Origin: Aquila chrysaetos chrysaetos
Lineage: Eukaryota; Chordata; Aves; Accipitriformes; Accipitridae
Assembly: GCF_900496995.4 (NCBI RefSeq)
Contig: NC_044004.1
Span: forward strand, 1-64,000
Reading direction: 5' to 3'
Length of the DNA: 64,000 bases
Position numbers and translations under genes: made by a program. Below are positions 41,545-54,554 of this stretch, piece after piece. Numbering within the stretch: the stretch's first letter is position 1; each line of letters begins with the position of its first letter. The notes under the pieces were generated by a model that did no database searches, was not told the origin of the DNA, and saw only the letters and a program-made list of their open reading frames with translations.

Positions 41545-41721
41545 ATGGCCCGGCCCAGATACAGCGGGGGTCAAGGCAGGAGCCGGCGTCGCCGCCATAC
41601 GATGCGTGGCATCCTGCGCCAGCCTCACCGCCGGTACGGGATGAGGCGATGCAAGCCCGCGGCACGCCGCCGCCAGCACAGGGTGCGGTGGTGGGATGGG
41701 AAACGCAGCGGACGCTGCTGA
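41545..41721 (+). CDS. Protamine-like arginine-rich protein P4
   Basis: A 58-residue intronless ORF opening MARPRYSGGQGRS and ending RWWDGKRSGRC. It has 20 arginines (34%), two cysteines (one terminal), and clusters SRRRRH and ARRRQHRVR. Avian protamines are short, intronless, arginine-rich and begin MAR, and they replace histones in sperm chromatin; the match in type is good. The gene is a complete unit: TATA box 77 bp upstream and AATAAA at 41819 with a GT-rich element. The ATG in 'gccagcatggcc' has A at -3 shifted to -4 but G at +4. Its coding sequence is identical to that at 43321. The WW-D-GK motif is unfamiliar, so a different basic nuclear protein is possible. Frame retention in three copies argues against chance. 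Confidence 0.72.
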   Translation: MARPRYSGGQGRSRRRRHTMRGILRQPHRRYGMRRCKPAARRRQHRVRWWDGKRSGRC

Positions 41722-41818
41722 GCAGACCCCAGCACTGGGCGTCTGCGGAGCCAGTGTCCCGAGGAGCCCGGCCACCCCTGACTCCATGCTGCCGGACTAC
41801 GGAGGCCCTGGCTCCACC

Positions 41819-41824
41819 AATAAA
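41819..41824 (+). terminator. Poly(A) signal of P4
   Basis: AATAAA in 'ccaccaataaatctgtaatg'. The following 'gagctgtgtgtgttctggct' is a GT-rich downstream element. Confidence 0.8.
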
Positions 41825-42199
41825 TCTGTAATGCTGGCATGAGCTGTGTGTGTTCTGGCTGTGTGTCTCCCTGTGCGCCGGCTGCGTGTCCCCCGCCGTC
41901 GTGTCCCGTGGCTGGGCGTCCGCGTCTGATGGGAGGGGGGGGGGGGGTGTCCCGTGGGTGCGCCTGTGCAGGACCAGCACGTGTCTCCAGGGCTGGAGAT
42001 GCCCCAGCCTGCCGGCTCCTGTGCTGGGTCTGACCCCTGTCTGCATGTCCCAGCCCATCTCCACGTCCCAGCCTGTCTCCACGTCCCCAGCCCATCTCCG
42101 TGCCCCCGTCCATCTCCACGCCCCAGTCCATCTCCACGTCCCAGTCCATCTCCACGTCCCCAGGCCACTTCCATGTCCCAGCCCATCTCCATGTCCCCA

Positions 42200-42528
42200 T
42201 GTGGCAGGTACACCCCCCGCCCCCGACAGCAAACGAAACTTCTCCGGGCAGGGAGGAGAGGAAAACAAACCCCAAACCCTGGAGGCCGCAGGGTGAAAAT
42301 TGAACTGGCCGTTCGAGATGTGCCAGGTACGCTGAAGTGACCTTTTGGCCAACAGGGATTAAAATGACCCCAGGTCAGATTCAACAAGGGTATAAACGGG
42401 GCCCCGCCGGAGGACATTTTCAGCCAGTCCTCCTCGGAGCAGCGGGTCTGCAGTCGGGGCCTCTCCCCTTGGGTCAGGACGCCGCCCCAGGTAGCTCCCC
42501 GAGGTTGAGAAGCCCTCAGCTTTCAGCC
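42200..42528 (+). mobile_element. Truncated LTR joined to 42-bp array
   Basis: The first 329 bp of the LTR that is complete at 43904-44436, including its TATA-like 'gggtataaacgggg'. It is cut at 'ccctcagctttcagccagta', where 42-bp repeats resume. The junction lies inside the duplicated unit that carries P4. Confidence 0.75.
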
Positions 42529-43120
42529 AGTATTGAAGGAACCGGCGACGGCGTGGGACCTGCACCCACCAGTACCGAAGCAGCCAGCGGCAGCGTGGGA
42601 CCTGCAGCTGCTGGTACCCAAGGAGCCGGCGGCGGCGTGGGACATGCACCCGACGGTACCAAAGGAGCCACCGGCAGCGTGGGACCTGCTGCTGCCGGTA
42701 ACGAAGGAGCCACCGGCAGCGTGGGACCTGCTGCTGCCGGTACCGAAGGAGCTAGCGGCGGCGTGGGACCTGCACCTGACGGTACCCAAGGAGCCACCGG
42801 CGGCGTGGGACCTGCACCCGCCGGTACCAAAGGACCGCTGGGGTGGGACCTGCTGCCGCCGGTACTGAAGGAGCCATCGGCCGCGTGGGAGCTGCACCCA
42901 CCAGTACTGAAGGAGCCACCGGCAGCGTGGGACCTGCACCCACCGGTACCGAAGGAGCCAGGGGCAGCGTGGGACCTGCACCCACCGGTTCCGAAGGGGC
43001 CGGCGGCGCCGTGGACACGAAGCCGACAGTACTGAAGGAGCCAGTGCTGGCGTGGGACAGGCAGGCACCGGTAGCAAAGGAGCTGGCGGCAGCGTGGGAC
43101 TTGCTGCTAGCGGTGCAAAA
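42529..43120 (+). repeat. 42-bp minisatellite array upstream of P5
   Basis: About 13 units, starting 'ccagtattgaaggaaccggc' straight after the truncated LTR and ending in degenerate units before the P5 promoter. From about 42985 on, it matches the end of the P4 array closely. Confidence 0.9.
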
Positions 43121-43244
43121 GGAGCACCTCTGCTCCTGCGCTGCCTCCTTCCGCTGCGCCGCGCTGCGCTGTGCCGCCTGCGCCACCGGCTGGCCCGGGG
43201 ACTCCTCCTGCGTCCCCTGCGCCGGGGCGGTGACCCGGCACCCC

Positions 43245-51956: not shown

Positions 51957-53600
51957 GTACATACCAAAATTTTGAAGTTTTCAAGCAAGCAAAAGTGCGT
52001 TAGTACAGCAATACAGTAAAATTTTCCTTCTCCTGCCTTTGTTCGAGGCTTCAGAACCACTGTCTGCACAACCCCTTGGATGGGAGCCAAACTCCCCTTT
52101 TTAAAAATGGAGGCTATGTTTCCCCTTTTCCAGTCAGTGGGAACTTCCCCGGACTGCCACGACTTCTCAAATATGATGGATAGTGGCTTAGCCACTTCAT
52201 CTGCCAGTGCCCTCGGGACCCGTGGCTGCATCTCATCAGGTCCCATGGACTTGTGCACCTTCAGGTTCCTTAGATGGTCTCGAACGTGATCTTCTCCTAC
52301 AGCGGGCAGTTCTTCGTTCTCCCAGTCCCTGCCTTTGCCTTCTGCGTCTTGGGCGGTGCGGCTGGAGCGCTTGCCGGGGAAGACTGAGGCAACAAAGTCG
52401 TCGAGTACCTCAGCCTTCTCCATGTCCCGGGTAACCAGGTCTCCCCTTTCCTTCCGGAGAGGGCCCCCATTTTCCCTCGTCTTTCTTTTATGACGGACGT
52501 ACCTATAGAAGCTTTTCTTGTTGCCCTTGACGTGCCTGGCCAGATTGAATTCCATCAGGGCTTTGGGTTTCCTAACCTGATCCCTGGCTGCTCGGGCAAT
52601 TTCTCTGTATTCCTCCCAGGCTACCTGTCCTTGCTTCCACCCTCTGTAGGCTTCCTTTTTGTGTTTGAGTTTGTCCAGGAGCTCCTTGTTCATCCACGCA
52701 GGCCTCCTGGCGGTTTTGCCTGCCTTCCTCTTTGTTGGGGTGCATCGCTCCTCAGCTGGGAGGAGGTGACCCTTGAATATTGGCCAGCTCTCTTGGGCCC
52801 CTCTTCCCCCCAGGGCTGTATCCCACGGTACTCTACCAAGCAGATCCCTGAAGGGGCCAAAGTCTGCTCTCCTCAAGTCCAGGGTAGCGAGCTTGCTGTG
52901 CGCCCTCCTCACTGCCTGAAGGATCTTGAACTCCACCATTTCATGGTCACTGCAGCCGAGGCTGCCCTTGATCTTCCCATTCCCCACCAGCCCCTCCTTG
53001 TTGGTGAGAACAAGGTCCAGCATGGCACCTCTCCTCGCTGGCTCCTCCATCGCTTGGAGAAGGAAGTTGTCATCAACGCATTCCAGGAACCTCCCGGATT
53101 GCTTGTGCCGTGCCGTGTTGTCCCTCCAACAGATAGGTACTGGGGTGGTTGAAGTCCCCCACGAGGACCGGGGCTTGTGAACGAGAGGCTGCTCCTCTCT
53201 GTCTGTCGAGGCCTCATCCGCTCGGTCTTCCTGGTCGGGAGGCCTGTAGCAGACCCCCCCATGATGTCACCTGTCCCTGCCCTCCCTTCCATCCTGAGCC
53301 ATGGACTCTCGGTCGGCTCCTCGTCCATCCCCGGGCAGATCTGGTCCATGCACTCCAGCTGGTCATTGACATGGAGGACGACACCCCCTCCTCACCTGCC
53401 CTGCCTGTCCTTCCCAGAGAGCCTGTCTCCTTCCGTGCCAACGCTCCAGTCACAGGAGCCACCCCACCACGTCTCCGCGATGCCGATAAGGTCACAGCCC
53501 TGCAGGTGTGCGCACGTCTCAGCTCCACTTGTATATTCCCCAGGCTTTCTGGGCTCCATCCCGAGGCTCCATCCTGGGGAACCCTGTGAGGACAGCCCAT
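51957..53600 (-). mobile_element. CR1 fragment, endonuclease to reverse transcriptase
   Basis: Minus strand. Endonuclease pieces in several frames lie at 53150-53600 (DRQGRRGGG-type and [13 protein letters not shown] sequence). A long frame 51950-53050 then reads [52 protein letters not shown] and [20 protein letters not shown]. Both ends are truncated. It lies head-to-head with the full-length CR1 3' end, about 100 bp away. Confidence 0.88.
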
Positions 53601-53605
53601 CCCCA

Positions 53606-54290
53606 CGTCACCATGACGTGGGCAGGGGCACAGGCAGGATGCAGCTCAAGCCCCCGTTCCTGAGCCCCCAGTCCCAGCTCCAACCCCAGCACTGCCGGCC
53701 CTTGTGCAGACCTTGGGGCCACCAGCACCCCGTCCCTGGGGCTGGCGGGGAGCCCTCTCCCGTGCCGGGGTCAGGCACCGGGGGCCGGAGCAGGGCTGGG
53801 CGCGGGGGTCACCCCAGGCAGAGCTGGGGGGGCGAGTGGGCAGGGGTCGGCGGCGCCAGGAAGGCTGAGGGCGATGGTGCGGAGGGAAATGCGGGGGCTT
53901 TAATGACGGAGGCGTCACTAAAGGGGAGTCTGGGGGACCGTGGCGGGGGTGGGCGACAACAGCACCCATGGGTGTCCCCCAGGCCCAGCTGTGGCGAGGC
54001 TCACAGGACCCTCCTCTTCCTCCTGTGGTAGTCAAGGGTCCTAGCTTTGACACCTGGGGGAGAAGCGATGCTGAGCCCATCACCGCTCCCACCCCCGGCC
54101 GGGGGGACCAGGAGCTGGGACCCCTCGGCCGTGGGGCCAGACGGCACCGGCACCACCGCCACCGCCAGCATCGACGCCGGCACCGCAGCCAGCACCTCTG
54201 CCCCTGCGCCGCCTCCTCCCGCTGCGCCGCCTGCGCCGCCGGCCGGCCCGGGGACTCCTCCTGCGTCTCCTGCGCCGGGGCGGTGACCCG
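53606..54290 (+). repeat. Upstream flank of P6, shared with P2
   Basis: GC-rich. From about 53760 it matches 13479-13990. It contains 'gaaatgcgggggctttaatg' and 'gagaagcgatgctgagccca', then the promoter-proximal 'ggggactcctcctgcgtctc'. No 42-bp array lies upstream of this copy, unlike P1, P4 and P5. Confidence 0.75.
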
Positions 54291-54297
54291 GCACCCC

Positions 54298-54306
54298 TAT
54301 ATAAAG
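54298..54306 (+). promoter_or_regulatory. TATA box of P6
   Basis: TATATAAAG, 77 bp before the ATG at 54375, preceded by 'tgcgccggggcggtgacccg'. An ATG at 54329 close to the expected start site begins a frame that overlaps the gene out of register. Confidence 0.85.
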
Positions 54307-54374
54307 CGGGGCGGTGGGCGCGCACCCATGTCACTCCGGCGGGGCCAGGCGGCCACCGGAGCCAGGGAGCCAGC

Positions 54375-54554
54375 ATGGCCCGGCCCAGCTACAGCGGGGG
54401 TCACGGCAGGAGCCGGCGCCGCCACCGCCGCCCCACGCGTGGCATCCTGCGCCGCCCTCGCCGCCGGTACGGGATGAGGCGACGCAAGCCCGCGGCACGC
54501 CGCCGCCGGCACAGGGTGCGGTGGTGGGATGGGAAACGCAGCGGACGCTGCTGA
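54375..54554 (+). CDS. Protamine-like arginine-rich protein P6
   Basis: A 59-residue intronless ORF, MARPSYSGGHGRSRRRHRRP at the start and RWWDGKRSGRC at the end. It has 24 arginines (41%), two lysines, three histidines and a single C-terminal cysteine. Relative to P4/P5 it has extra arginines and one more codon, and it lacks the internal cysteine. It has a full gene unit: TATA box, short 5' UTR, AATAAA at 54770 with a GT-rich element. The 3' UTR includes the RNF145-like intron-4 module. Composition, length, the MAR start and the lack of introns fit avian protamine. A role in packing sperm DNA is inference from family type. P1 is the closest relative (nearly identical after its 2-bp deletion). 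It is the best candidate for the ancestral, constrained member. Confidence 0.75.
   Translation: MARPSYSGGHGRSRRRHRRPTRGILRRPRRRYGMRRRKPAARRRRHRVRWWDGKRSGRC

What the first reader, a model, noticed from the sequence alone, without database searches (positions are those of the whole stretch)
41545..54554. Amplified cluster of intronless protamine-like genes
Three intact and four decayed members of one short, arginine-rich, MAR-starting gene family lie in one window, each promoter-bearing copy with TATATAAAG (or TATAAAG) 75-77 bp before its ATG, and each copy with an intact 3' end with AATAAA plus a GT-rich element. The sequence shows the gene units directly. The protamine identity rests on composition, size, the MAR start and the lack of introns, as known for avian protamines. 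The C-terminal RWWDGKRSGRC motif is not one I know from described protamines, so the family may be undescribed. High GC and high repeat content would explain its absence from many assemblies.
Basis: partly seen in the sequence, partly recalled or inferred. Interest (0 to 1): 0.88.

Follow-up and report, generated by a model that had tools for sequence, protein, structure and literature searches.

The report
Chromosome-end relatives of eagle protamine genes
At the tip of an eagle chromosome sit several copies, some readable and some decayed, of a short arginine-rich gene related to the bird's apparent sperm DNA-packing (protamine) genes, in a family that has spread, multiplied and seeded a DNA satellite.

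Summary
Observation confirmed: three intact and four decayed copies, with the stated TATA boxes and AATAAA signals. The bird is almost certainly the golden eagle (bAquChr1.4); the window is the start of chromosome 1.

From the window alone the protamine reading is weak: arginine is 34-41% and similarity to known protamines hardly exceeds composition. They encode 59-63 residues with 46-49% arginine and resemble chicken protamine (sequence recalled) beyond composition (z 3.0-4.7). Copy E shares their promoter (32/34) and 3' UTR (96-98/103), but only about 71% of the coding sequence.

So the window holds a divergent subtelomeric branch of the eagle's protamine-like family (28 loci or fragments found, 13 intact), beside a dead branch. 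The 42-bp satellite there grew from the gene's 3' coding end.

Whether the window copies still make a working protein is unsettled: differences among them fit neutrality, yet coding sequence has changed several times faster than the 3' UTR since the branches split. The RWWDGKRSGRC tail belongs to this branch only. No expression data were available.

The parts
41468..41476 (+). TATATAAAG box of copy E
41545..41721 (+). copy E, intact 58-aa Arg-rich frame
41819..41824 (+). AATAAA of copy E, GT-rich element after it
43245..43253 (+). TATATAAAG box of copy F
43321..43497 (+). copy F, intact; CDS identical to E (0/174) while 5' flank differs 8/198
43595..43600 (+). AATAAA of copy F
54298..54306 (+). 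TATATAAAG box of copy G
54375..54554 (+). copy G, intact 59-aa frame, 41% Arg
54570..54718 (+). 149-bp stretch in the 3' UTR of G, absent from E, F, D and from the chr5/chr2 genes (so probably an insertion); a copy lies alone at 63674-63822
54770..54775 (+). AATAAA of copy G
1791..1952 (+). A-type copy, decayed; N-terminus reads MARSRHSRSRSRS then TGA
4507..4684 (+). copy B, decayed by a 2-bp frameshift; TATA box shortened
14515..14680 (+). A-type copy C, decayed
17051..17100 (+). copy D, 3' fragment with its AATAAA at 17198
1..345 (+). 42-bp minisatellite at the very start of the contig
1918..3557 (+). 42-bp minisatellite starting inside A-type copy A; unit matches the gene's 3' coding end
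14653..16275 (+). 42-bp minisatellite starting inside A-type copy C
40335..41327 (+). 42-bp minisatellite upstream of copy E
42535..43104 (+). 42-bp minisatellite upstream of copy F
1292..1680 (+). 81-bp tandem array upstream of A-type copy A; 41-52 of 44-53 bases of a unit also stand upstream of the chr5/chr2 genes

Best explanation
The window carries a subtelomeric, tandemly amplified branch of the golden eagle's protamine-like gene family. An ancestral intronless gene (TATA box, about 60 Arg-rich codons, short 3' UTR with AATAAA) gave three branches: seven intact 'core' genes on chr5 and chr2 (probably the main sperm protamines); an A-type that is dead at each of the 5 of 7 loci read; and the window type (MARP..RWWD.KRSG.C) with six intact and seven broken or truncated loci. 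A-type gene, 42-bp array and window-type gene were duplicated together. Inferred mechanism: intact copies are transcribed in spermatids from the shared TATA promoter and make a small cationic protein that joins or modulates DNA packing by the core protamines, its C-terminal Cys perhaps allowing disulphide links. Shown: gene structure, kinship, branches, likely origin of the satellite. Inferred: expression, protein, function, and which branch is ancestral.
For: DNA search with A-type copy A links all three branches (25 matches). E against three of the core genes: promoter 32/34, TATA-to-ATG 55/68, 3' UTR 96-98/103, CDS 123-127 of 174-176 alike. Core genes: 7 of 7 open, 46-49% Arg, TATA 69 bp before ATG, AATAAA 97 bp after stop, length differences in whole codons; chicken protamine similarity z 2.98-4.67 for the 5 distinct core proteins. 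Three separate clades. Core chr2 against one chr5 gene: CDS 14/180, UTR 4/175 differences (p 0.027); 9 of 9 changed codons nonsynonymous. E and F: CDS 0/174, 5' flank 8/198. Satellite unit matches the core 3' coding end 30 of 36; 0 of 2000 shuffles as high for the chr5 gene, 1 of 2000 for the chr2 gene. A-type N-terminus matches chicken at 7 of 10 positions after MAR, p 0.00085 (chosen after looking; the same test gives p 0.42 for G and 0.09 for E).
Against: Window copies: Arg 34-41%, below the 50-70% that a review gives for PRM1 (passage); core genes at 46-49% also lie just below. No homology of G, E or H to known protamines clearly beyond composition (I and J not compared). Differences among window-type copies fit neutrality; 7 of 13 window-type loci are broken or truncated. 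An acidic residue and WW in the tail are odd for a protamine (recalled). No transcript or peptide seen. Pfam's P1 model hits none of them, but it also misses the recalled chicken and opossum sequences.
Confidence: 0.6

Rival explanations
1. The window branch is dying: a protamine-related duplicate trapped in subtelomeric repeats whose remaining open frames have survived by chance; only the chr5/chr2 genes work.
For: dN about equal to dS between copies and the nonsynonymous share fits neutral simulations; the chance of a new stop in 5-13 substitutions is only 0.10-0.29. 7 of 13 window-type loci are broken or truncated. E/F and G differ at several Arg codons by CpG changes, which may be loss in E/F or gain in G. 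The A-type is dead at the 5 of 7 loci read.
Against: Since the split from the core genes the CDS changed at 47-53 of 174-176 sites but the 3' UTR at 5-7 of 103 (E), which plain neutral decay does not give unless the UTR is constrained or converted. E and F keep identical CDS with diverged 5' flanks (conversion possible). Changed Arg codons stay Arg more often than a CpG-weighted neutral model predicts in 3 of 4 core-window comparisons (p 0.009, 0.021, 0.049; fourth 0.091), but in none without the CpG weight.
Confidence: 0.33
2. The window copies are amplified protamine variants in genetic conflict (a male meiotic-drive or suppressor system), as Dox and Mst77Y protamine-like genes are in flies.
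For: Amplified, fast-changing protamine paralogues with many dead siblings match part of the profile listed in PMC12941216 (passages).
Against: No sex linkage shown (C1 is inferred to be an autosome; C93, C95, C131 unplaced); no expression or transmission data; lineage restriction not tested.
Confidence: 0.06
3. A non-protamine Arg-rich nuclear protein, e.g. transition-protein-like.
For: Lower Arg, WWD motif, a GMRR stretch; G against TNP1 p 0.13.
Against: TNP1 comparison not better than shuffles for G, E, H or A-type; kinship with protamine-like core genes.
Confidence: 0.06
4. Chance GC-rich frames in satellite DNA, not genes.
For: GC about 68%; many Arg-rich readings of the array in tblastn.
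Against: 0 comparable frames in 30 model windows; the array matches the gene's coding end and two arrays start inside gene copies; 13 intact loci with promoter and poly(A) signal.
Confidence: 0.02

Closest known systems
Chicken/quail protamine (galline), intronless, about 62 aa (recalled: Oliva and Dixon)
   Same: Size, no intron, Arg-rich, MAR start of the window type, RRSRT..RSRRRRR and [FY]GSRR stretches in the core genes
   Different: Eagle: Cys at the C-terminus of all 13 intact copies, MKR start in core genes, 13 intact loci, window type with only 34-41% Arg and a WWD tail; chicken gene number and structure are recalled, not checked
Ostrich/tinamou histidine-rich protamine (Ausio 1999; seen only as a reference-list entry)
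   Same: Bird protamine with histidine; intact eagle copies have 2-4 His
   Different: No sequence available here to compare
Drosophila SNBP amplifications, Dox, Mst77Y (PMC9917458, PMC12941216; passages)
   Same: Protamine-like genes amplified, fast turnover
   Different: Other protein families, mostly on sex chromosomes in flies (16 of 20 amplifications, passage); here an inferred autosome end and internal clusters; drive not shown
Mammalian P1 (Pfam PF00260)
   Same: Small Arg-rich, Cys present
   Different: Mammal P1 has an intron (recalled); of the copies compared (G, E, H, A-type, 5 core proteins) only E reached p 0.04 against human P1; no Arg-rich frame in the 30 kb read on one side of RMI2

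Membership tests
Avian protamine (chr5/chr2 core genes) | Sequence similarity to a known bird protamine beyond composition | tested here: met
   all 5 distinct core proteins, z 2.98-4.67, p 0.0005-0.008 (chicken sequence recalled)
Avian protamine (window copies) | Sequence similarity to a known bird protamine beyond composition | tested here: not met
   G, E, H against chicken p 0.11, 0.33, 0.04; I and J not tested
Avian protamine (window copies) | Common descent with protamine-like genes (DNA) | tested here: met
   A-type query matches window type at 75-78% and core at 73-75%; E and core promoter 32/34, 3' UTR 96-98/103
Avian protamine (window copies) | Arg content of protamines (50-70% for PRM1 in PMC8812575, passage) | tested here: not met
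   34-41%; core genes 46-49%, just below
Avian protamine | No intron | tested here: met
   continuous frame ATG to stop with AATAAA 97-215 bp on in E, F, G and 97 bp on in 7 core genes; splicing not observed because no RNA
Avian protamine | Spermatid-specific expression and presence in sperm nuclei | not testable with these tools
   no RNA-seq or proteome held
Protamine P1 (Pfam PF00260) | Match to the Pfam model | tested here: inconclusive
   no match, but recalled chicken and opossum sequences also fail; human P1 passes; genome-wide PF00260 search did not complete
Mammalian PRM locus | Neighbour of RMI2/SOCS1 (recalled) | tested here: inconclusive
   RMI2 lies at C25:12.607 Mb; no Arg-rich frame in the 30 kb read on one side; other side not read, SOCS1 not located

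The most novel reading that the evidence does not exclude
An autosomal protamine gene has spawned a chromosome-end family of altered, arginine-poor, cysteine- and tryptophan-bearing protamine variants that are expressed and compete with or modify the core protamines, i.e. a vertebrate counterpart of the protamine-based genetic conflicts of flies, with the gene's own coding end turned into a subtelomeric satellite.
Probability: 0.08. Interest if true: 0.88.

Novelty: new variant of a known kind. Interest (0 to 1): 0.58.

Why it matters
Bird protamines are known from few sequences (recalled). Among the listed results of nine literature searches with protamine terms (open-licence library, capped lists) none was about an eagle or a multicopy avian protamine family. 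The core genes give a usable query for protamines across birds, and the branches let one test whether bird protamines turn over by amplification and death, as in flies, and whether genetic conflict is involved. A gene whose coding end became a minisatellite is a clear case of satellite birth.

Tried and rejected
Family and homology look-ups gave nothing: Pfam, 5.8 billion proteins at E 1, PDB with the 5-protein profile (best E 1.2). A control, recalled chicken protamine, also found nothing at E 0.001, so that emptiness is not informative. Chicken protamine as a query in the eagle genome found nothing (3 candidates scored), a false negative, since the core genes exist. A degenerate MARYRR.R-type start pattern gave two matches, a GC-rich frame on C9 and a piece that looks like retroviral pol on C27; rejected. 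The RMI2 neighbourhood was read on one side only. dN/dS could not separate function from neutrality among the window-type copies. A first test of the satellite against copy G was weak (p 0.02 whole CDS, 0.009 last 70 bases; 0.37 for A-type bases 1791-1917, which leave out its tail); it became strong against the core genes. Trees of CDS, 5' and 3' parts, made without support values, disagree, so copies may exchange sequence; branch order inside the window type is not relied on, and the family tree is unrooted. Neighbour-gene search: 2 of 10 long frames hit Pfam, both TRC8_N. A script failed because of a wrong file name.
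Full report
WHERE IT IS. The genome search places the window at the first 64,000 bases of contig C1 of a 1,233,704,830-base genome in 144 contigs. C1 is 85,456,622 bases, C25 19,844,373, C9 45,241,448 and C27 11,729,522, C2 83,001,952, C5 76,621,501 and C8 46,934,974. The golden eagle genome note (PMC8499043, part 1 of 2 of the text) lists chr1 85.46 Mb, chr2 83.00, chr5 76.62, chr8 46.94, chr9 45.24, chr25 19.84, W 11.73, span 1,233 Mb, 145 scaffolds. 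Apart from one scaffold fewer and a last-digit difference for chr8 this agrees, so I take the genome to be Aquila chrysaetos bAquChr1.4, C1 = chr1 and the window = its start. No run of two or more TTAGGG occurs in the window.

OBSERVATION. The three intact frames are the only short frames with at least 34% Arg in the window, and none occurred in 30 model windows.

FAMILY IN THE GENOME. Protein search with copy G: 12 matches. DNA search with A-type copy A: 25 matches: 7 A-type, 10 window-type, 7 core and one 43-base piece on C95. Adding O and P and window fragment D gives 28 loci or fragments. The 13 window-type loci are: intact E, F, G on C1 and H, I, J on C95; broken B on C1, K on C93, M and N on C131; truncated D, O, P on C1. 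The core protein query finds the same 7 core loci, all open. The tool states that such counts are lower bounds. One A-type copy begins 578 bases before the end of C8, which with the C1 start points to a subtelomeric home for that unit.

THE CORE GENES. 59-63 aa, 27-30 Arg (46-49%), TATATAAAG 69 bp before the ATG and AATAAA 97 bp after the stop in 7 of 7. Length differences among them are whole codons. Against recalled chicken protamine the 5 distinct proteins score z 4.67, 3.82, 2.98, 3.02, 3.65 over 2000 shuffles each; against recalled human P1 none does (z -1.18 to 0.08); against opossum P1 only the chr2 protein slightly (p 0.045). Six core genes form three head-to-head pairs on chr5 in inverted repeats whose longest arms (371-604 nt) are 99% complementary, shorter ones 89-100%. 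Recent pair duplication or exchange is likely; an assembly effect is not excluded.

LINK BETWEEN THE BRANCHES. Copy E against three of the seven core genes (two chr5, one chr2): promoter 32/34 alike, TATA-to-ATG 55/68, 3' UTR 96-98 of 103, CDS 123-127 of 174-176. So gene frame and controls are shared while the coding part has changed several times faster than the 3' UTR. Relaxed constraint on codons alone does not explain this unless the UTR is constrained or kept alike by conversion; adaptive change is one reading.

THE WINDOW BRANCH. Its 5 distinct proteins keep 42 of 59 columns invariant, with 34-41% Arg and 1-3 Cys. Similarity of G, E and H to recalled chicken, human, opossum protamine or TNP1 is mostly within shuffles: among 32 comparisons (A-type included, with and without MAR) the lowest p values are 0.040-0.050. 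NG86 dN and dS are of the same order in all pairs, and the nonsynonymous share among copies lies within neutral simulations. So function is not shown by selection tests. E and F are identical over 174 coding bases while their 5' flanks differ at 8 of 198 and 3' flanks at 2 of 147, though gene conversion could do that.

THE DEAD BRANCH. Five of seven A-type loci were read; all five contain the same TGA after the RSRSRS stretch (in C_14515 a 1-base loss upstream also breaks the frame). Its N-terminus MARSRHSRSRSRS matches recalled chicken MARYRRSRTRSRS at 7 of 10 positions after MAR (p 0.00085; G 3 of 10, p 0.42; E 4 of 10, p 0.09; chosen after looking).

SATELLITES. Five 42-bp arrays lie in the window (1-345, 1918-3557, 14653-16275, 40335-41327, 42535-43104); the second and third start inside A-type copies. 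The unit matches the last coding stretch of a chr5 core gene at 30 of 36 bases (score 42, shuffle maximum 30 of 2000) and of the chr2 gene at 29 of 36 (score 37, shuffle maximum 38; p 0.001). I conclude that the array grew from the gene. The 81-bp array unit resembles 41-52 of 44-53 bases just upstream of the core genes (no shuffle control made).

RATES. Between the chr2 gene and one chr5 core gene the CDS differs at 14 of 180 and the UTRs at 4 of 175 (Fisher p 0.027); 9 of 9 changed codons are nonsynonymous, against a neutral expectation of 0.72-0.79. A-type against G: promoter core 1 of 34 differ, promoter-to-ATG 11 of 88, CDS 30 of 137. Faster coding than regulatory change is usual for protamines (recalled); numbers are small and the tests were chosen after looking.

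JUDGEMENT. What it works like: if translated, a small cationic chromatin-packing protein. What it is: by descent kin of the eagle's protamine-like core genes; as a working protamine the window branch fails two defining tests (Arg content, direct similarity) and awaits expression data. Shown: structure, kinship, amplification, decay, likely satellite origin. Inferred: spermatid expression, protein, DNA binding, any role beside the core protamines, and the root. Papers: PMC8812575, PMC7126135, PMC6679404, PMC12941216 and PMC9917458 were seen as passages only; other titles as search listings.

Noticed in passing
window 10213-11568, 12584-13138, 34248-35549, 36990-38210, - strand: Endogenous retroviral frames: coat-type domain, integrase, RNase H, and gag p30; described only.
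   Followed up: partly
window 48893-50983, + strand: LINE remnant with endonuclease and reverse transcriptase domains, CR1-like by recall.
   Followed up: no
L016 652-2026 (C1:64652-66026), + strand: Exons of a TRC8_N/RING ubiquitin ligase gene (RNF145-like by recall) just beyond the window.
   Followed up: partly
L024, L025, L026 (C5: 3.695, 3.707, 2.630 Mb): Core protamine-like genes in three head-to-head pairs within inverted repeats, longest arms 99% complementary; possibly palindromes kept alike by gene conversion.
   Followed up: partly
window 63674-63822; L012 6419-6566; L013 2667-2816; L014 2974-3120: The 149-bp stretch found in the 3' UTR of G-type copies occurs also outside the genes, so it may be a mobile or duplicated module.
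   Followed up: no
window 17601-18677 and 56736-57823; 13527-13982 and 53843-54288: Duplications of 97.5% and 90% identity near the gene copies.
   Followed up: no
window 1292-1680 and 14067-14406: 81-bp array whose unit resembles the sequence upstream of the core genes; this second satellite may also have grown from the gene's surroundings.
   Followed up: partly
L020 (C25 about 12,592,600): Frame resembling a von Willebrand-type/lipid-transfer protein near RMI2 (label by recall).
   Followed up: no
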